Part shown: positions 20 through 9,156 of the stretch, one piece after another
How the letters are laid out: each line of letters opens with the position of its first letter
Numbering within the stretch: the first letter of the stretch is position 1
Assembly (NCBI GenBank): GCA_016839845.1
Contig: JAEOTL010000462.1
Location: 1-17,390 of the forward strand
DNA: 17,390 bases
Direction of reading: 5' to 3'
Source of the DNA: Promethearchaeota archaeon
GTDB lineage: Archaea; Asgardarchaeota; Lokiarchaeia; Sigynarchaeales; SOKP01
Notes under the pieces: generated by a model
The model's input: only the letters and a program-made list of their open reading frames with translations
What the model was told of the DNA's origin: nothing
The model's database searches: none
Program-made: the position numbers and the translations under genes

Positions 20-3000
20 TTACGAATTTTTTACAATCGTACCACACTGAGGGCAAAATTTCGCTGTCTTATTTAGTTTCATCCCACAGAATTTGCAGAA
101 TATTGGTATTTTCTTTGGGCTCTCAACTGGTGATGGAGGTGCTTCTTCAATTATAGGTTCTGGAATCTCTTCTATTGGCGGTTCTTCAGGTTTTTCCGGA
201 ATTGGTTCAAGTGGTTGTGGCTCTTCAATCATTTCTTTTATGTCTTCTTCTTGTATGGGTACTTTTTCCTCCTCTGGAGGAACGAGTGGTATAGGCTCCA
301 ATTCTTCAACTTCCGCACGGGATATTTCTATCTCTGCTATTTCCTTTTCTTCTATTAAAATTAATGGCTCCGGGAGTGTTTCTTCTTCTGGCGGTATCAC
401 AAGTTCCTCTTGAGGTTCTAATTCTTCAGGTTTCTGAACCAAATCTGATATAGGTGGAAACATTGGTTGTTGATCTTCAGAGATTTTTTCTTCCTGTTCA
501 CTTTCTAAAGTTGTTTCCCCACATTTAATACAAAAATTTGCTTTAATAGGCAATTCTTGACCACACTTAGTACAGAATTTTGTTTCCTTTTGTTCTTTCT
601 CCATTACTCTCGGCTCCTCAAGTTTATCGAGCCATTTTCTTATAGTATAGATACTTGTATTTTGGTCTTGTGCAATTTGATAAAGTGTTTTCTTTTGATC
701 ATAGTATTGAGCTTTTAACCAATCTGGATTCATATATTCCTTCTTTTCCACTTTCTGAGCATATTGATATCTAGGTTTGGTATATTTCGGCACTGATGGC
801 ATCCTTCTCCTAGAAGCAATCACTGCAGATACGATTATTATTACAATGATGACTACTAGAACCACTACTATAGCCGTAATTACAGTAGGAAATTGAGGTT
901 TCGGTGCCACGATTTCCTCGATATCTACACCATTATTGTTAAAGATATTGTTTGAAATTTGATTATTAGAAGAGTAGTAAACATAAATACCAAAATTATG
1001 GAATTGAATAGTGTTTCCCACAACTGTATTAAGGTTACTTCGACCTAAATATATTCCGCGGTCTATATTTTGACTTATAAAATTATTTATAATATCGATG
1101 TTATCAGATTCATATAAATAAATTCCGGTTAACGAGTTCCCACTTATTATATTGCCTGTAATTATGTTGGAATATCCGTATATCATATAGATCCCATAAT
1201 CAAAATTATTATTCAGATTGTTATCTAAAATGCTATTATAATAATTGCCAGATGATAAATAAATTCCTGGACCATTATTGTCGTATACTGTATTATCTTC
1301 AATAAGATTGTAATCACCTCCATTTATGTATATCCCACGATGATTGTTGCTTATATCATTGGATACTATGTCGTTGTAATGGCTGTAATACAAATAGATC
1401 CCTTCATCTGCGTTGTTTGATATGATATTGTCGGTAAAGTCGTTAATGTCACTATAGTATAAATAAATCCCGATATCTAGGTTATTTCTTAATCTATTAT
1501 TCAAAATTTGGTTTCTATCGCTATAATCTAAATAAATTCCTGCTTGATAATTAGCCTCTAAAGTGTTGTTCCTTATTACACTATCGAAGCAATTAGTCAG
1601 GAATAGCCCTCCTAATGAGTTATCACTTATGAGGTTGTCTAAAAACCTATTAAAAGAACCGTAATCTGAAATGATTCCCCACCCAACGTTATTAGATACA
1701 TTGTTTACTAAAACATAATTATCATCACTATAAAACAAGTAGATCCCTGTCGAACTGCTGTACTCTACGCGATTTGCTTCAATAGTATTATTATCACTAT
1801 CCGTACCGAAATATATTCCAATGTTATTATCCCATGCGAAATTTCCCTCAATTTTATTAAATTTACTGTCTGAATAAAGGATAAATCCTATGTCATTATT
1901 GCTAGCATTATTTCCTATGATGTCATTTCCATCACTAAAGACTAGATGTATACCATCAAAATTATTATTCAATACTGTATTGGAGGAGATGTTGTTATTA
2001 TTGCTATATTGAATGTATATTCCATAATCGTTATTACTTACAAGATTCCCCTCAATTAAGTTATTCTCACCGTATTCTATATTTATCCCAAAATCGTCAT
2101 TTGTCATCGCGAAATTGCCTAAAATTAAATTATTACTACTATTTATCAATTCTATTCCTCCTCTAATATTGTTATTTACATTGTTTCCTGTGACGTTATT
2201 AAAGTTGCTGTGCATCAGTGAAATTCCGATTTGTTCATTATCGTTTGCAGTATTCTCTATCAATTGCCCATTACTCACATTAACTAATTGGACACCTCCA
2301 TTATATAATGTGCAATTTTCAATATTAAAGTAGATATCAGAATTTTCAATGGTTATGCATTGTCCCAACACTTCGCTATCTATTACTAAATCTTCAATTA
2401 CATATGGATTGGAAATTGTTCCTTGACCAGTACATTTATTAGCGCTTCTAAAATATAGCCATTCTCGATTGCCATCTAAATGAATAGTTTGAGGGGCTAG
2501 TGAGCTATTCTGCGTTACTCCATAAAAACTTAATTTACCCAATGGATTCGATTGAAATCCAATAATATGACTTCGAAAAGCATCATACCTATGTGAAACA
2601 ATACCATAAGCCCAAGGTATATCTTCTTCTACAAGAATCTGTTGAATTCTATCATAGTACGCCTCCCTAATAGTCTGATTGGTCTCGAATGATGCATTTT
2701 CAATTAATAATTGTGCATTGTCCCATAGATCATAGGGATTTCTCCCAGATTCGATGGCAGCTTGGTATCCGTCGTAAAAAGCCGTATTAAATAGTGAAGA
2801 TCTGTTAGAAAATAAAAAATTAAGTGCACTAGCAGGATCATTATAATCAGAATAGAAACCTAACCAAACCAGCTCCCACATATCCCAAGTGTACCCACTT
2901 CTTTGATAAAATATATCGTAAAATTCTGAAGAACTAACTCCCGCATCTGTTATTTCGATTCCAATTTTATCAAGATTATCCTGCAACAGAAAAAGGAGAT

Positions 3001-4855
3001 TTTCCCTAAATGTGTTTCCGGTGTCATAACTATAATTGAAAGTAGCAAATGTTATACTCGACCAGTTTACTTCAGAGGTCCCAGGAAATGTTGTGTCCCA
3101 TCCAGTTCCGAATCCCATACTTTGCATGATACCTCTGGCTTTGGTGATATTAAACGTAGCTGTATCAAGCGACCAGTTAGCGAATAACAGATCCTCTAGT
3201 AGAGGAGACATTAATCTATCGGCCGGACTTTCACATAATGTATTAATTATATGAGAGTAGTTAATTGCATAAGAGATTGCTTTTCTATAAGTACTGTTAA
3301 TTTTTTTGGTATTCATACTAAGATATTCAGTGACTGAGCTATGTCCCGCATCTTGGAGCGTGATATCTGGATCTGCATTAAGAGTAGGAAACATTGAGGG
3401 TTGCGGATCAGTAATAATATCAACATCTCCAGCTATCAATGCGAGATTTTTAGGATCGACATCTTTTAAATACCCATAGATCTTTACCTCATCAAAAGCA
3501 AAATCGTTGTAAAAATTTGTTCCCCCCACTACTACCCTAAATCTAATTTTTAAATCGTCATTTTCCAAGGCAGTAAAATCGTATGGACCTCGAGCAGTAA
3601 AGGTTGTAATACTATCTCCTGCCCAATCGTCTCTAATTTCCCAACTATCTCCATCCCAGTATTCAAAATACATGTGTCCTGCTGGGTCACCCTGCATGCA
3701 TGTATCGAATGTCACGTAAATTCCATGAAGACGTGTATCTATTGCCTCTGTATCTGATAATGTCGCGATATATACGTCTCCAACTTCTGTGGGTGATGAT
3801 GTTTCTGGATAAATACAGGATATCCCACTTGGTGGCCCTGTAGGGTCGGATGGTGTCCCACTATCAGTCCAACACCAATATTGGTACGTTCCTCTATCTG
3901 CTACTGAATGATAACCTATATCAGTATTCCAATATTCCCAACTTCCGTCGTTAGCTTCATTTAGAGTATTAAAACTATAAGTTTTATCGTAAGCAGTATA
4001 TGTTTCTGAAATAATATCAAACTTTAGAATCGTAATATTGGCTCTTCCTGCCCAATAATCATCGTAAGCATGGAATAGCACCTCATCATCTGAGATGTAA
4101 TGATCAAAAACAAATGGACCTGTACCAACTAAATCTCCAGTAACAGTATCTATAAGATCATATTGGGGTGTAGACATTGGAGATAAGATATACGAAGAGG
4201 GAAAACAGAGAAGTGCTTCAAAAGGTCCGTACAGTTTATTTAATTCAAAACGAACGGTATATTCATCAATAATTACTGTTTGTTTGATTATAAGTTTGAC
4301 TATATCAACATCTGGATCATAATACTCATAAAGAAAACTTGCCATTGCCATAGAATTATTGATTAAATATGCCAAACGATCAAACGTAAACTTTACGGCA
4401 GTTGCATTAAATTTTGACCCATCGTGGAATGATACATCAGATCTTAGTGAAATGGTATACCAAGAATCAGTACTATTAATTAACCATGTTCCCTTACTGA
4501 GTGCTAGATTCGGAATAATTGAAAAAGAGGGATCGCTTAGATTATAAGTATACAATCCTTCGCACACTTGATTAATCACATCAAAAGAATCAGAGTTTAA
4601 GCTATTTTGAGGATCGAGATTTGTTGGACCTGAATCAGCACCATAGATTAATCTAAATATCTCTTCTCCTTGACTGCTAAGAATGAGGTTTTGGTCTAAG
4701 ATTATTTGATCTTTTTCAATGGGTAGATATACCTCTTTGTCAAAATTTATTAAATAAATTGAGAATAGTGATGCAACGATGAAAAAAAGTAATAAAATTC
4801 CCTTTAAATTAAACTGCTTTCTTAATTTAATTGATTTATGAGATTTTCTGACCAT
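20..4855 (-). CDS. Membrane receptor-like protein: solute-binding domain, NosD-type beta-helix, membrane helix, HTH-like segment and two zinc ribbons
   Basis: 1611 residues, ATG start. Residues 19-37 form a hydrophobic signal or anchor helix with no lipobox. Residues about 63-775 resemble an SBP_bac_5 oligopeptide-binding domain (early 'GPTNLDPQ', 'VSFHDGSKFNATAVKFTFDR', 'GTGPFVF', 'ALIAGDVDII'). They are interrupted at about 284-464 by a Trp- and Asp-rich probable beta-sandwich. Residues about 795-1315 are an Asn-rich parallel beta-helix. Residues 1324-1347 are a strong membrane helix followed by Arg-rich sequence, which places the tail in the cytoplasm. The tail has an HTH-like stretch (1376-1412), zinc ribbon 1 (C1428/C1431/C1442/C1445), a Pro/Glu-rich acidic linker (about 1449-1580) and zinc ribbon 2 (C1587/C1590/C1601/C1604). 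No permease or ABC ATPase gene is adjacent, so uptake is not implied. Ligand sensing or surface binding coupled to a cytoplasmic partner is my inference. Domain calls are confident; the function is not. Confidence 0.88.
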   Translation of the reverse strand: MVRKSHKSIKLRKQFNLKGILLLFFIVASLFSIYLINFDKEVYLPIEKDQIILDQNLILSSQGEEIFRLIYGADSGPTNLDPQNSLNSDSFDVINQVCEGLYTYNLSDPSFSIIPNLALSKGTWLINSTDSWYTISLRSDVSFHDGSKFNATAVKFTFDRLAYLINNSMAMASFLYEYYDPDVDIVKLIIKQTVIIDEYTVRFELNKLYGPFEALLCFPSSYILSPMSTPQYDLIDTVTGDLVGTGPFVFDHYISDDEVLFHAYDDYWAGRANITILKFDIISETYTAYDKTYSFNTLNEANDGSWEYWNTDIGYHSVADRGTYQYWCWTDSGTPSDPTGPPSGISCIYPETSSPTEVGDVYIATLSDTEAIDTRLHGIYVTFDTCMQGDPAGHMYFEYWDGDSWEIRDDWAGDSITTFTARGPYDFTALENDDLKIRFRVVVGGTNFYNDFAFDEVKIYGYLKDVDPKNLALIAGDVDIITDPQPSMFPTLNADPDITLQDAGHSSVTEYLSMNTKKINSTYRKAISYAINYSHIINTLCESPADRLMSPLLEDLLFANWSLDTATFNITKARGIMQSMGFGTGWDTTFPGTSEVNWSSITFATFNYSYDTGNTFRENLLFLLQDNLDKIGIEITDAGVSSSEFYDIFYQRSGYTWDMWELVWLGFYSDYNDPASALNFLFSNRSSLFNTAFYDGYQAAIESGRNPYDLWDNAQLLIENASFETNQTIREAYYDRIQQILVEEDIPWAYGIVSHRYDAFRSHIIGFQSNPLGKLSFYGVTQNSSLAPQTIHLDGNREWLYFRSANKCTGQGTISNPYVIEDLVIDSEVLGQCITIENSDIYFNIENCTLYNGGVQLVNVSNGQLIENTANDNEQIGISLMHSNFNNVTGNNVNNNIRGGIELINSSNNLILGNFAMTNDDFGINIEYGENNLIEGNLVSNNDYGIYIQYSNNNNISSNTVLNNNFDGIHLVFSDGNDIIGNNASNNDIGFILYSDSKFNKIEGNFAWDNNIGIYFGTDSDNNTIEANRVEYSSSTGIYLFYSDDNYVLVNNVSNNVGWGIISDYGSFNRFLDNLISDNSLGGLFLTNCFDSVIRNNTLEANYQAGIYLDYSDRNQILNNRLRNNLDIGIYLYYSDINDFTDNIISNNADEGIYLYYSHYNDIVSNDISNNHRGIYINGGDYNLIEDNTVYDNNGPGIYLSSGNYYNSILDNNLNNNFDYGIYMIYGYSNIITGNIISGNSLTGIYLYESDNIDIINNFISQNIDRGIYLGRSNLNTVVGNTIQFHNFGIYVYYSSNNQISNNIFNNNGVDIEEIVAPKPQFPTVITAIVVVLVVIIVIIIVSAVIASRRRMPSVPKYTKPRYQYAQKVEKKEYMNPDWLKAQYYDQKKTLYQIAQDQNTSIYTIRKWLDKLEEPRVMEKEQKETKFCTKCGQELPIKANFCIKCGETTLESEQEEKISEDQQPMFPPISDLVQKPEELEPQEELVIPPEEETLPEPLILIEEKEIAEIEISRAEVEELEPIPLVPPEEEKVPIQEEDIKEMIEEPQPLEPIPEKPEEPPIEEIPEPIIEEAPPSPVESPKKIPIFCKFCGMKLNKTAKFCPQCGTIVKNS
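923..2230 (-). repeat. About 19 tandem 22-24-residue beta-helix coils inside the receptor-like gene
   Basis: Within the 1611-residue protein, residues 876-1311 break into consecutive coils. They begin near residues 876, 899, 922, 945, 968, 990, 1013, 1037, 1060, 1083, 1106, 1129, 1152, 1174, 1197, 1221, 1244, 1267 and 1289. The consensus is roughly G-I-Y-L-x-Y-S-x-x-N-x-I-x-x-N-x-[IV]-x-x-N-N. Gly-Ile starts each coil and Asn occupies the turns, as in NosD/PbH1 right-handed beta-helices. The repeat is protein-level: codons differ between coils, so the DNA copies are not near-identical. Residues about 795-875 hold less regular capping coils. Confidence 0.85.
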
Positions 4856-5133: not shown

Positions 5134-7896
5134 CTATATCAAAAATAGTAATTTTCCGAGAAAACTCATGAGATCCATGACTTTCAATTTATCTTTCAAT
5201 TCTCGATTCTCATTTAAATAACAATTTAAATGAGCTGTACATTTTGGACATGCCGTAATTAGATATTCCGCACCAGTTTCAATTGCTTGCTTGACTTTTT
5301 TTTCTTGTAATTTTTTAGAGTTCTGGTCACAAGAGATGTATGATGAGACTCCACAACATTCGGCATCTTCTTTTGAATATTCCATCTCAACTAAACCAAC
5401 GGAAGGGATTAATTCCAAAACTTGGCGAGGTGCATCAAAGACTTTACTCATTCTCCCTAATCTGCATGGATCATGGTAAGTGACCTTAATTTTATCCAAG
5501 TTAGGAAAAGATATGTCTTCTAATAGCTTTTCTTTTAAAATATATTCTGAAATGTGATATATCTCGAAATCAAACTCATCCTTACCTTTAAAGAGATTTT
5601 TGTAGTCATGTTTCCATGTATAATAGCCTTCCGCACAATTAAAGATCAACGTTTTTACCCCTGCTTCTTTAAAGAGTTTTATATTATATTCTGCTAAAAT
5701 TTTAAAGGTTTCAGTGTCTCCTCGCCAAAGAGCATCATGTCCACAACATTTTTCATCTGGTAACACAACTGGAATTATGTCATTTTGATTTAAAAGCCCA
5801 ATTACACTTTTTGGGATTTCCAAATAATCAGGTGCATTCAGAGAACTCCAATTATCTTGATTCCCATAATTAGCTATCATGACACCAGAAGCATCCAGAG
5901 CTTTTTCGAAATCTTCGGGAAGTTGATCAGAATTACAGCAGCAATTACAGTTTAAGCATCTATTCGCTTCTTTTTTTGCTTGCTCATCTGTATAACCCAA
6001 TTCCATTTCATCAAAACAGATCAGCCGCTCATTACCAGGCATAAAATTCATTTCCTGACATGAATTAGATTGGATATATTTCTTAGGGATTGTAGATCGT
6101 TTTAGGTCGCTTTTGACAATTCTTCCTTCTCTTAAATCAAGACCTCTAATATATCTATCAATTGTGAAGGCTGCTTCTCGTCCGTCACCAATTGCGTCAA
6201 CAGCACACATTAACGAACTATAAATAATATCACCACCAGCAAACACACCAGGGATGCCTGTTTCATAAGTTAATTCATCAACTACAATTTTTCCTCTTTC
6301 AATTTTTAGTTTGCTCTCCGTTGCAGTATTAATAGGTACAGGATCAAGTCCTTGACCAATAGCAATTACAATGTGATCGACGACGATTTTAAATTCTGAG
6401 CCTTCTACTTTATTTAAGGGTCTTCTCCCAGTCTCAGGATCTGAATCACCCCATTGAATTTTATAACAATTTAGGGCTAATTTTCCATCAGGTTCTTGGG
6501 TAATATTCGCAGTTGACGTTTCAAAATGATACTCCATTACTTCTCTTTCAGCTTCATGTAAATCCTTGAGTACATTTTTTAAGGCTTCTTCAGATAAAAT
6601 ATCAACAAGATCAGCTTTAATAGCTCCTAACCGAATCGCAGTTTCCCCAGCATCTACGGCAACAGCGCCTCCTCCGATGATTCCAAATGTTTTACCTTTA
6701 AATTCTTCTGGATTTTCAGCACATTTATACTTTCTATCTACAAGAAAATCAAGTGCAACATGGACATTTGGGAGATCTTCTCCTTCAAGTCTAAGAGTTT
6801 TTGGTACATACAAACCGACGGCAATAAAAACTGCTTTAAATCCTTCCTTCCAGATATCTTCCAATGTAAAATTGGCCCCAAACTCTTTATTTAAAACTAT
6901 TTCAACACCCATGGACTTTATAAACTCTACGTCATGATCAAGAGCCTCATCAGAAAGACGGTATTGAGGTACCCCATATCTCACTACCCCACCCGTTTTA
7001 TCTCCTTTCTCAAAAATGGTGGGTTTATATCCCATTCTGGCAAGAAAATATGCGGCAGATAAACCTCCTGGTCCTGCTCCGATAATCGCAACTTTTTCTT
7101 TGGTTTGTGGAACTGGTTTAATTTTACTCTGACCTGGATGGGCAGCTTCATAATCTGACACAAATCGTTTAAGTTCTCTAATGGCTACTGGATCATCAAA
7201 GTTTTGGCGATTGCAGTTCAATGCACACTGAGCAGTACAAATTCTTCCACACAAGTATGGTAACGGATTTTTATCTCGTATCAGATCAATAGACTCTTGA
7301 AATTTTCCCTCAGATATCAATGATACATAGCCTTGAACGTCAACTCCCGCAGGGCATCCAACAACACAAGGAGCTGTACCAGATAAAAAGGGAACGCATC
7401 CCATAAAATACCCAACTTCTCCTTCATTAGCTATTTTTAATCCTGTACCTTCAAGAAATCCTGTTTTATTTGTAAATTTAATTTTATCTTCAGCCATTAA
7501 TTTAGGTAGGCTAGAATAAACCCGTTCGTGATTACAGCTCTGTAATCCCTCCATCAATGGTTCATACTCTGAAGCTAACGAGCGGAGATCTTTAATAATT
7601 TTAGTAAAGTTAACTCCAATCTCTTCCTTCGTCATTGGGCAATAAACAGAACATAACCCACAAGTAAGACATTTCCAAATGTCATTATTTTCTAACGCTT
7701 CTTCAGGTGTTAAAAATGTAAGATCCATGATTAAACTACGAGGATAAAATACATCAAGAAAAGCAGTTGGGCAAACATTGTTGCATCGATTGCATGAATA
7801 GCAATAATTTGCAGCAGTATTTACTCGTTTAAGTAACTCAATTGACTCAGTGCTCGTAATTTTTTCTTCAGCTTCTTTTTGATCAGATTCAGTCAT
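5134..7896 (-). CDS. HdrD-like iron-sulfur protein with embedded GltD/NfnB-like FAD-NAD(P)H oxidoreductase module
   Basis: 920 residues, ATG start, no signal peptide, so cytoplasmic. Residues 32-42 and 76-86 carry two CxxCxxCxxxC ferredoxin motifs in an HdrC/GlpC-like arrangement. At 161-167 'VGYFMGC' opens a CCG domain. Residues about 174-680 are GltD-like: an N-terminal cluster region (C177, C181, C216, C220, C224, C228), FAD loop GAGPGG at 273-278, a second dinucleotide loop GGGAVA at 408-413, and 'FAGGD' near 552-556. The CCG domain then resumes (C717-C718). A second, intact CCG domain follows with C811, C847-C848 and C883/C886, matching C-x35-CC-x34-CxxC. HdrB/HdrD domains of this kind bind non-cubane 4Fe-4S clusters and act on disulfides or relay electrons. 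The likely role is transfer of electrons between NAD(P)H and a thiol/disulfide or ferredoxin-type partner. Substrate and partner are unknown. No other hdr or hydrogenase genes are adjacent. Confidence 0.9.
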   Translation of the reverse strand: MTESDQKEAEEKITSTESIELLKRVNTAANYCYSCNRCNNVCPTAFLDVFYPRSLIMDLTFLTPEEALENNDIWKCLTCGLCSVYCPMTKEEIGVNFTKIIKDLRSLASEYEPLMEGLQSCNHERVYSSLPKLMAEDKIKFTNKTGFLEGTGLKIANEGEVGYFMGCVPFLSGTAPCVVGCPAGVDVQGYVSLISEGKFQESIDLIRDKNPLPYLCGRICTAQCALNCNRQNFDDPVAIRELKRFVSDYEAAHPGQSKIKPVPQTKEKVAIIGAGPGGLSAAYFLARMGYKPTIFEKGDKTGGVVRYGVPQYRLSDEALDHDVEFIKSMGVEIVLNKEFGANFTLEDIWKEGFKAVFIAVGLYVPKTLRLEGEDLPNVHVALDFLVDRKYKCAENPEEFKGKTFGIIGGGAVAVDAGETAIRLGAIKADLVDILSEEALKNVLKDLHEAEREVMEYHFETSTANITQEPDGKLALNCYKIQWGDSDPETGRRPLNKVEGSEFKIVVDHIVIAIGQGLDPVPINTATESKLKIERGKIVVDELTYETGIPGVFAGGDIIYSSLMCAVDAIGDGREAAFTIDRYIRGLDLREGRIVKSDLKRSTIPKKYIQSNSCQEMNFMPGNERLICFDEMELGYTDEQAKKEANRCLNCNCCCNSDQLPEDFEKALDASGVMIANYGNQDNWSSLNAPDYLEIPKSVIGLLNQNDIIPVVLPDEKCCGHDALWRGDTETFKILAEYNIKLFKEAGVKTLIFNCAEGYYTWKHDYKNLFKGKDEFDFEIYHISEYILKEKLLEDISFPNLDKIKVTYHDPCRLGRMSKVFDAPRQVLELIPSVGLVEMEYSKEDAECCGVSSYISCDQNSKKLQEKKVKQAIETGAEYLITACPKCTAHLNCYLNENRELKDKLKVMDLMSFLGKLLFLI

Positions 7897-8022: not shown

Positions 8023-9156
8023 TTGGTGATAATCTTTAATCTCGAATCAATTGACTTTTCACGGATCGGTCCAATTTTTGGATTTTCTTTTCGGGATTCT
8101 TTAAAACTTATAATGTCAAATGGTTTCATCCCGGTAAAGCATTATATGCGTATTGTGTTTATTAATACAATCAGTATTGTTGGAATCTTATTCCGGATAC
8201 GCGAATATCTACTTTATGATAGGCATCTAAAGAATTATAAGTTACCCTCAGATCCTATTTTTATTATTGGTCATTGGAGAAGTGGTACAACCCATCTCCA
8301 TAACCTTCTCTGCCAAGATCCTCAATTCGGTTTCATAACCATGCTTCAAGCTTCATTTCCTAAGTCGTTCCTGAGCACTAGCTTTTTTAGCTTTTTTATG
8401 AGGACGTTTCTTCCTGAAACGCGTCCTATGGATAATATTCGAATGGGAGTTGAAGAGACTCAAGAGGATGAGATGGCTTTAGGTAATATTTTTCCATATA
8501 CTCTTTATAATGCATGGTATTTTCCTAAACGAATAATAGAATATTATCATAAGTACGTAAGATTCAAGAGGATATCCCCAAGAATTAAAAAAGCCTGGAA
8601 AAAGGGCTATAATTACTTACTAAGAAAAACTACCTTCAATATGGGAGGTAAACAGTTAGTTCTAAAAAATCCCGCTAATACAGCTCGTATAAAATTCTTA
8701 TTAGAATTATACCCTAATGCAAAATTCATTCACATCTTTCGGAATCCCTATACCATCTATTTATCAACCCGGTATTTCTATAAAAAAACGATGGAGAATT
8801 TCATGTTCCAAAATGTTTCAAATACCCTAATTGAGGATAGTATCATAAAGATATACAAGGATATGATGGAATGTTATTTCACTGAAAAGAAATTGATCCC
8901 TAAAGGAAATTTGGTTGAAATAAAGTTTGAAGATTTGGAAAAAGACGCTATTGGACAATTAAAAAGGATTTATGATATCCTAAATCTTCCTGGAATCGAC
9001 AATAGCAGATCGAGTATTGAAGATTATCTTGAGCAACAAAAAAATTACAAAAAAAATAAATTCCAGTTGTCAAAAGGTATAATAGATAAAATAGAGAAAC
9101 AATGGGGATTCACAATAAAGAAATGGGGTTATAAAATCCCTGAATCTACTTTTTAG
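8023..9156 (+). CDS. PAPS-dependent sulfotransferase family protein (Sulfotransfer_3-like)
   Basis: 377 residues. It would transfer a sulfuryl group from PAPS to an unidentified acceptor such as a lipid, glycan or small molecule. The 5'-phosphosulfate loop is visible at residues 81-90 (IIGHWRSGTT, followed by HLHNLL). A 'VLKNP' segment lies at 213-217, and the 3'-phosphate-binding region at 235-252 has the FRNP-x8-STR pattern. A Lys/Asn-rich 'KNYKKNKF' near 340-347 is typical of the C-terminus in this family. Residues 40-58 are hydrophobic and may associate with membrane. The start is TTG at 8023 or GTG at 8026; the first in-frame ATG (8113, residue 31) would remove part of the usual N-terminal region. 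The upstream TATA box position favours the TTG/GTG choice. The 3' end overlaps the convergent QueG-like gene by 11 bp. The family call is firm; the substrate is unknown. Confidence 0.88.
   Translation: MVIIFNLESIDFSRIGPIFGFSFRDSLKLIMSNGFIPVKHYMRIVFINTISIVGILFRIREYLLYDRHLKNYKLPSDPIFIIGHWRSGTTHLHNLLCQDPQFGFITMLQASFPKSFLSTSFFSFFMRTFLPETRPMDNIRMGVEETQEDEMALGNIFPYTLYNAWYFPKRIIEYYHKYVRFKRISPRIKKAWKKGYNYLLRKTTFNMGGKQLVLKNPANTARIKFLLELYPNAKFIHIFRNPYTIYLSTRYFYKKTMENFMFQNVSNTLIEDSIIKIYKDMMECYFTEKKLIPKGNLVEIKFEDLEKDAIGQLKRIYDILNLPGIDNSRSSIEDYLEQQKNYKKNKFQLSKGIIDKIEKQWGFTIKKWGYKIPESTF

What the first reader, a model, noticed from the sequence alone, without database searches (positions are those of the whole stretch)
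20..4855. Single-chain candidate receptor linking an oligopeptide-binding domain and beta-helix outside to HTH-like and zinc-ribbon parts inside
The order is signal/anchor, SBP_bac_5-like domain, beta-helix of about 19 coils, membrane helix (1324-1347), HTH-like segment (1376-1412), zinc ribbon, long Pro/Glu-rich acidic linker, second zinc ribbon. Seen directly: the domains, membrane segment and Cys patterns. Known: SBP_bac_5 binds peptides, NosD-type helices bind or present surfaces, and short zinc ribbons mediate protein or nucleic-acid contacts. Inferred: the protein senses an extracellular ligand and passes this to a cytoplasmic nucleic-acid or protein partner without an ABC transporter, as no permease or ATPase gene is nearby. 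This may be an undescribed archaeal surface-receptor class.
Basis: partly seen in the sequence, partly recalled or inferred. Interest (0 to 1): 0.7.

Follow-up and report, generated by a model that had tools for sequence, protein, structure and literature searches.

The report
Modular Asgard surface receptor, zinc-ribbon tail
An archaeon, probably of the Lokiarchaeia, encodes a single-chain surface protein that looks like a receptor, with a nutrient-binding clamp and a long stalk outside and a DNA-binding-like plus zinc-ribbon tail inside; relatives carry the same kind of outside part on quite different inside parts, including the TIR domain of immune receptors.

Summary
In detail: one 1611-aa ORF (20-4855, minus) encodes signal/anchor, SBP_bac_5, about 20 beta-helix coils, one membrane helix, an HTH-like segment and two zinc ribbons split by a Pro/Glu-rich linker. 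The protein is not a lone oddity: of 117 SBP-bearing relatives (a partly hand-picked set), 27 carry a long tail after a membrane helix: TIR 14, zinc ribbons 6, other 5, WD40 1, Ras-like GTPase 1. WD40 and zinc-ribbon tails sit on ectodomains 74% identical in the SBP part. In one genome scan, 6 of 51 Asgard and 0 of 29 bacterial SBP ORFs had such tails. The HTH is found in 2 of 6 zinc-ribbon members, is 81% identical between them and models as three helices, but stays below Pfam cut-offs. Best reading: a modular family of single-pass Asgard receptors; the window's member relays ligand binding to an HTH/zinc-ribbon adaptor. Function is inferred. Nine searches of an open-access library did not bring up a description.

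The parts
20..4855 (-). whole ORF, 1611 aa, candidate single-pass surface receptor
4742..4816 (-). N-terminal hydrophobic signal/anchor (residues 14-38)
   Evidence: hydropathy peak 20-38, basic n-region
4001..4687 (-). SBP_bac_5, first part (residues 57-285)
   Evidence: Pfam PF00496; model and Foldseek
3461..4000 (-). insert within the SBP domain (residues about 286-465), beta-rich, no Pfam match
   Evidence: motif found in P0001, P0002, P0003, P0005 only among proteins P0001-P0070; no Pfam hit; low-confidence strands
2477..3460 (-). SBP_bac_5, second part (residues 466-793)
   Evidence: own SBP profile spans 57-793
911..2353 (-). right-handed parallel beta-helix, 23-residue period, about 20 coils (residues 835-1315)
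   Evidence: NosD/Beta_helix, TIGR03804 with 14 stretches
815..886 (-). membrane helix (residues 1324-1347), followed by RRR
608..736 (-). HTH-like segment (residues 1374-1416)
   Evidence: 35 of 43 residues identical in P0070; three-helix model; structural neighbours mostly HTH DNA-binding domains; Pfam sub-threshold
506..586 (-). zinc ribbon 1 (residues 1424-1450)
   Evidence: Zn_Ribbon_1/DZR; 25 of 27 identical in P0070
110..505 (-). Pro/Glu-rich acidic linker (residues 1451-1582)
23..109 (-). zinc ribbon 2 (residues 1583-1611)

Best explanation
The gene encodes a member of a modular family of single-pass surface receptors of Asgard archaea, mainly Lokiarchaeia. Shown by sequence: an ABC-type solute-binding clamp (SBP_bac_5) and a beta-helix stalk on the N-terminal side of one membrane helix, and variable, conserved signalling-type domains on the other side. 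Inferred: binding of a small ligand (SBP_bac_5 relatives bind peptides, metal chelates or opines) closes the clamp or clusters the receptor, and this is passed through the single helix to the tail. In the window's protein the tail is an HTH-like segment, a zinc ribbon, an acidic Pro/Glu linker and a second zinc ribbon, which I take for an adaptor that recruits a cytoplasmic partner, possibly DNA or a transcription complex. In relatives the same kind of ectodomain is joined to a TIR domain (with an invariant Glu at what I recall as the position of the catalytic Glu of NAD-cleaving TIRs), a Ras-like GTPase or a WD40 propeller.
For: Domains and topology. SBP fold intact in the model: 5u4o E 5.8e-31, TM-score 0.88 by target length; peptide- and nickel-binding proteins follow. 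27 of 117 SBP-bearing relatives have a tail of 40 aa or more after a C-terminal helix, of several kinds. Tail difference at close range: P0001 and P0005 are 74% identical in the SBP part but zinc-ribbon/HTH versus WD40 inside. On the SBP tree the label ZnR needs at least 2 changes, TIR 3 and other tails 3 by starred branches (quick tree). Conserved islands in the tail against P0070: HTH 81%, zinc ribbon 1 93%, versus membrane helix 50% and juxtamembrane 54%. TIR segments found by my own profile: Glu 43 of 43, Ser 43 of 43. Same-scan control: tails in 6 of 51 Asgard and 0 of 29 bacterial SBP ORFs (the scan's two patterns came from Asgard proteins). No DppBCDF-like gene at 6 tail-bearing loci or in the window.
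Against: No ligand, signalling or localisation data. The HTH is below every Pfam cut-off, was modelled from two sequences (mean pLDDT 64.6), has no significant Foldseek match, and gave no match in 4 of 6 zinc-ribbon members. 50 of 117 relatives end within 40 aa of the membrane helix, so the ectodomain often works without any output domain. WD40 and GTPase tails rest on one protein each; a search with the GTPase tail found no second SBP fusion. At the syntenic place the nearest genome (G004) keeps only an ORF of beta-helix end + membrane helix + zinc ribbons without SBP or signal peptide, and two other genomes have no such gene there: the gene is dispensable or fast-turning.
Confidence: 0.6

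Rival explanations
1. It is a membrane-anchored capture protein: the SBP scavenges peptides or metal chelates for an ABC permease encoded elsewhere, the beta-helix is a spacer, and the tail is only an anchor or assembly handle.
For: 50 of 117 relatives have only a short anchor; ordinary members of the same SBP family sit in loci with BPD_transp_1 permeases: 6 of 20 ORFs without a C-terminal helix; the SBP fold is that of transport proteins.
Against: Tails hold independently named domains, can be more conserved than the ectodomain (P0017/P0032: SBP 43%, tail 69% identity), and differ in kind between close ectodomains. None of 6 tail-bearing loci has the permease, though neither have the 12 anchored ORFs.
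Confidence: 0.22
2. Membrane-tethered one-component transcription regulator: the HTH binds DNA directly and the zinc ribbons stabilise or dimerise it, as CadC/ToxR-type proteins do (recalled). This is a narrower form of the best explanation, not exclusive of it.
Confidence: 0.3
3. Defence or self/non-self receptor: the family senses phage, neighbour or peptide cues and triggers TIR-type NAD cleavage; the zinc-ribbon members are regulators in the same pathway. Not exclusive of the best explanation.
For: TIR tails in 14 of 117 (own TIR profile); PF13676 precomputed for 11 of the 64 hits and above cut-off in P0008, P0012, P0017 and P0043; invariant Glu; weak ThsB_TIR matches; tandem TIR proteins in L001 and L002.
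Against: Defence genes around them were not looked for (padloc not run); the window's protein has no TIR match.
Confidence: 0.15
4. Chimeric assembly or mispredicted ORF.
For: Single contig for the window's protein; a short contig (6.7 kb) for the WD40 relative P0005.
Against: P0070 is 62% identical from the SBP part through the tail; P0002 aligns over 99% of the window's protein.
Confidence: 0.02

Closest known systems
SBP_bac_5 proteins of ABC importers (DppA, OppA/AppA, NikA, CntA)
   Same: Domain (PF00496) and fold
   Different: Beta-helix, C-terminal membrane helix and signalling-type tail; no permease or ATPase linked in the part seen
Bacterial receptors with SBP-type sensor domains or activated by SBPs (PMC9602780, passages seen)
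   Same: Solute-binding fold used to sense
   Different: The passages name kinases, chemoreceptors, cyclases and transcription regulators as outputs; here TIR, Ras-like GTPase, WD40 or HTH/zinc ribbon, with one membrane helix and the SBP N-terminal
Membrane-bound one-component regulators (CadC, ToxR; recalled)
   Same: Sensor outside, possible DNA-binding part inside, one chain
   Different: Different sensor, opposite domain order, HTH of another type, zinc ribbons
Toll-like receptors (recalled; TLR passages in PMC11249213)
   Same: For the TIR-tailed relatives: ectodomain, one membrane helix, cytoplasmic TIR
   Different: No LRR found in the members scanned; TIR_2-type TIR with invariant Glu; the window's own protein has no TIR. 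Likely convergent in layout
TackOD1 archaeal output domain (PMC5847659, passages seen)
   Same: Cys-rich, double-zinc-ribbon-like output domain of archaeal signalling proteins
   Different: Below cut-off; four CxxC here instead of 11 conserved Cys

Membership tests
SBP_bac_5 domain family (PF00496) | Pfam match above curated cut-off | tested here: met
   185.1 bits against 32.4
SBP_bac_5 domain family (PF00496) | Two-lobed solute-binding fold | tested here: met
   Model pTM 0.69; Foldseek 5u4o E 5.8e-31
ABC importer solute-binding subunit | Encoded with its permease and ATPase | tested here: inconclusive
   None in the window, but only 19 bases are visible downstream; none at 6 tail-bearing relatives' loci
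NosD (TIGR04247) | Score above NCBIfam cut-off | tested here: not met
   104.6 bits against 300; the Pfam family PF05048 itself is met
HTH DNA-binding domain | Pfam match above cut-off | tested here: not met
   HTH_DeoR 14.6 against 21, HTH_23 14.1 against 24.6
HTH DNA-binding domain | Tri-helical HTH fold | tested here: inconclusive
Membrane-bound one-component regulator (CadC/ToxR type) | Tail binds DNA and regulates genes | not testable with these tools
   Needs biochemistry
TackOD1 (PF18551) | Above cut-off, 11 conserved Cys | tested here: not met
   17.9 and 13.8 bits against 32; four CxxC in the protein
Toll-like receptor layout (relatives) | Ectodomain, one membrane helix, cytoplasmic TIR | tested here: met
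   For relatives such as P0008, P0012, L120, L127; not for the window's protein
Toll-like receptor family proper | LRR ectodomain | tested here: not met
   No LRR family among the Pfam matches of the members scanned

The most novel reading that the evidence does not exclude
Lokiarchaeia carry an undescribed superfamily of single-pass receptors in which ABC-type ligand-binding clamps (SBP_bac_5, Peripla_BP_6/ANF-type), beta-helices and LVIVD repeats outside are mixed freely with TIR, Ras-like GTPase, WD40 and HTH/zinc-ribbon output domains inside: a receptor repertoire with the layout of animal innate-immune and Venus-flytrap receptors in the archaeal group nearest to eukaryotes. The window's protein is the branch that signals to a nucleic-acid or adaptor target through an HTH-zinc ribbon tail.
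Probability: 0.45. Interest if true: 0.87.

Novelty: new variant of a known kind. Interest (0 to 1): 0.7.

Why it matters
How Asgard cells sense their surroundings and feed their many small GTPases and other eukaryote-like domains is, to my knowledge, largely unknown. A family whose outside part stays alike while its inside part switches between TIR, GTPase, WD40 and HTH/zinc ribbons gives a direct, testable handle: one ligand-binding assay and a set of natural tail swaps. It also shows the Toll-like layout (ectodomain, one helix, TIR) in the archaeal group nearest to eukaryotes, which bears on whether that layout arises easily.

Tried and rejected
Chimera or assembly error: disfavoured by P0070 and P0002. 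NosD copper protein: below the NCBIfam cut-off. TackOD1: below cut-off. Identity of the SBP insert: no Pfam match, best PDB sequence match E 0.99; left open. The Foldseek search with the tail model gave no match with E <= 0.001, and its top rows by E are ribosomal L40e zinc ribbons. The window's own genome is not held. Searching 227 Asgard-phylum genomes with P0002 found no other zinc-ribbon receptor at E <= 1e-100 (3 of 227 genomes, matches in the SBP part and start of the beta-helix of two TIR-type proteins and one anchored protein); but at most 2 candidates per genome were scored there, 6 and 11, so absences in these searches are weak. A GTPase-tail search found no second SBP-GTPase fusion among 7988 candidates; P0071 carries the GTPase end on a many-helix membrane part instead. 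Nine literature searches on Asgard or Lokiarchaeota with TIR, receptors, sensors or SBP_bac_5 (one search listed 20 of 58, 18 of 19) brought up no title or abstract describing these proteins; one search was for TackOD1. In the Asgard defence survey PMC11291487 (passages only) TIR occurs twice, inside lists of defence-system names (one of them '2TM 1TM TIR'), with no receptor of this kind in the passages seen. PMC10732462 and PMC11237479 (passages) did not bear on the question. Not done: padloc scan of the TIR loci; full census of tails in the 227 genomes.

Full report
What is there. The ORF at 20-4855 (minus strand) encodes 1611 residues. Pfam places SBP_bac_5 (two stretches), NosD/Beta_helix and two zinc ribbons, all above curated cut-offs. 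At my threshold the only hydropathy peaks are at the N-terminus (20-38) and at 1328-1346; an RRR motif directly after the second predicts an inside tail. The beta-helix has a 23-residue period; 18 coil motifs were counted in 835-1322.

(a) The SBP domain is split by about 180 residues that match no Pfam model and no PDB sequence better than E 0.99. A motif of this insert occurs only in P0001, P0002, P0003 and P0005 among P0001-P0070 (P0070 lacks the N-terminal half). The SBP model (22 sequences, mean pLDDT 73.1, pTM 0.69) shows the insert as lower-confidence strands within a good SBP fold. (b) The stop codon ends at base 20, so nothing downstream can be judged. No gene like the oligopeptide-transporter permeases and ATPases of L005, L023 and L036 (seven of the eleven query genes checked by Pfam: BPD_transp_1, ABC_tran with oligo_HPY) is in the window.

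Relatives. A search of 5.8 billion proteins gave 64 hits at E <= 0.001, the query's own entry included, with 7996 candidates scored; those with an organism name are Asgard. A scan of one genome per species gave 68 loci. Among SBP ORFs in them, 26 of 51 Asgard ORFs had a C-terminal membrane helix and 6 of 51 a tail of 40 aa or more; of 29 bacterial ones none had either. The two search patterns came from Asgard proteins, and some ORFs are cut by contig ends. Pooling proteins and loci, including regions I chose for long frames, gave 118 different sequences, of which one pair is the same gene: 50 of 117 anchored with a short tail, 40 without a C-terminal helix, and 27 with long tails: 14 TIR, 6 zinc ribbon, 5 other, 1 WD40, 1 Ras-like GTPase. 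Pfam confirms TIR_2 (P0008, P0012, P0017, P0043), Ras (P0057), WD40 with seven stretches (P0005) and zinc ribbons (P0001, P0023).

Tail exchange. P0001 and P0005 are 74% identical in the SBP part but have HTH/zinc-ribbon and WD40 tails; P0001 and P0002 are 73% in the SBP part and 32% in the tail; P0017 and P0032 are 43% in the SBP part and 69% in the tail. Starred branches force at least 2 changes for ZnR, 3 for TIR and 3 for other tails; gain and loss are not told apart. P0002 and P0024 tails are 45% identical over 167 aa while their SBP halves are 50% and 38%, so shared descent of the whole protein is not excluded for that pair.

The same end elsewhere. A profile of the zinc-ribbon tails matched 13 of 227 genomes at E <= 1e-8, with at most 11 candidates scored per genome. 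Read by eye, L171 has an N-terminal part that resembles TPRs and L182:6047-7129 is a short membrane protein; both end in zinc ribbon, linker, zinc ribbon. That suits a docking module.

Synteny. The window's helicase-like gene is 72% identical to one in G004, the genome of Lokiarchaeota locus L004; this single gene is my basis for 'probably Lokiarchaeia'. At that place G004 has, next to the same 920-aa oxidoreductase gene (87%), a 259-aa ORF holding only the end of a beta-helix, a membrane helix and a zinc-ribbon tail; G007 and G003 have the oxidoreductase gene but no such ORF between it and the next gene. I infer that a receptor of this type sat there before the lineages split or arrived in both, and is readily lost.

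Wider picture. Of 67 genomes with the SBP family at E <= 1e-60 among 227 I searched 50 for TIR_2: 18 of 26 and 20 of 24 have it at E <= 1e-6. I fetched 20 regions picked for long TIR frames. Ectodomain + one membrane helix + TIR was seen, among others, in L119-L128, L133, L136 and L138, two of them (L127, L133) without an N-terminal signal at my threshold. Ectodomains scanned are beta-helices (L119, L120, L121, L124, L126, L136, L138), Peripla_BP_6 with beta-helix (L125, L127, L128, L133; ANF_receptor above cut-off in L127 and just below in L128) or LVIVD repeats (L123). Others (L126:4498-8172, L129:7762-11427, L130, L131, L132, L134) are TIR proteins without a membrane helix. 43 different TIR segments found by my own profile share an invariant Glu and Ser, at what I recall as the catalytic Glu position. 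In L001 and L002 the SBP receptor directly follows a beta-helix-TIR protein on the same strand.

Gene context. Permease genes lie in the locus for 6 of 20 SBP ORFs without a C-terminal helix (two in L005, one each in L019, L023, L028, L036), 0 of 12 anchored, 0 of 4 TIR and 0 of 2 other-tail ones, among L001-L042; flanks vary from 0 to about 18 kb. Because anchored forms also lack them, this alone does not show a signalling role.

Judgement. Receptor-like layout: well supported. Modular family with different output domains: well supported for TIR and zinc ribbons, single cases for WD40 and GTPase. Signalling by ligand: inferred. DNA as target of this protein: possible. Using a solute-binding fold as sensor is known in bacteria (PMC9602780, passages), so I rate it a new variant of a known kind; the set of output domains and the Asgard setting are what is new to me, and nine searches of the open-access library did not bring up a description.

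Noticed in passing
L120, L121, L124, L126, L127, L128, L133, L136, L138: Single-pass TIR receptors without SBP_bac_5: beta-helix or Peripla_BP_6/ANF-type ectodomains on a TIR tail.
   Followed up: partly
L001:7703-20695; L002:9791-17541: Tandem genes: a beta-helix-membrane helix-TIR protein directly before an SBP-TIR receptor; the L001 receptor is 3619 aa with two SBP domains.
   Followed up: partly
window 3461-4000: Beta-rich insert of about 180 aa inside the SBP domain, no known family found.
   Followed up: partly
L126:4498-8172, L129:7762-11427, L130:3964-7635: TIR proteins of about 1220 aa without membrane helix, with similar frame lengths in several genomes.
   Followed up: no
L139:2706-10970: 2754-aa ORF with several SBP matches in one chain.
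   Followed up: no
L181:8656-9435: Syntenic remnant-like ORF: beta-helix end, membrane helix and zinc ribbons, no SBP or signal peptide.
   Followed up: yes
window 8023-9156: Sulfotransferase-family gene with no counterpart in the syntenic stretches L181, L184 and L185.
   Followed up: no
window 5134-7896: 920-aa fusion of 4Fe-4S, Pyr_redox_2 and CCG domains, about 87% identical in three syntenic genomes.
   Followed up: no
P0071: The GTPase end of P0057 also occurs on a membrane protein with many helices.
   Followed up: no
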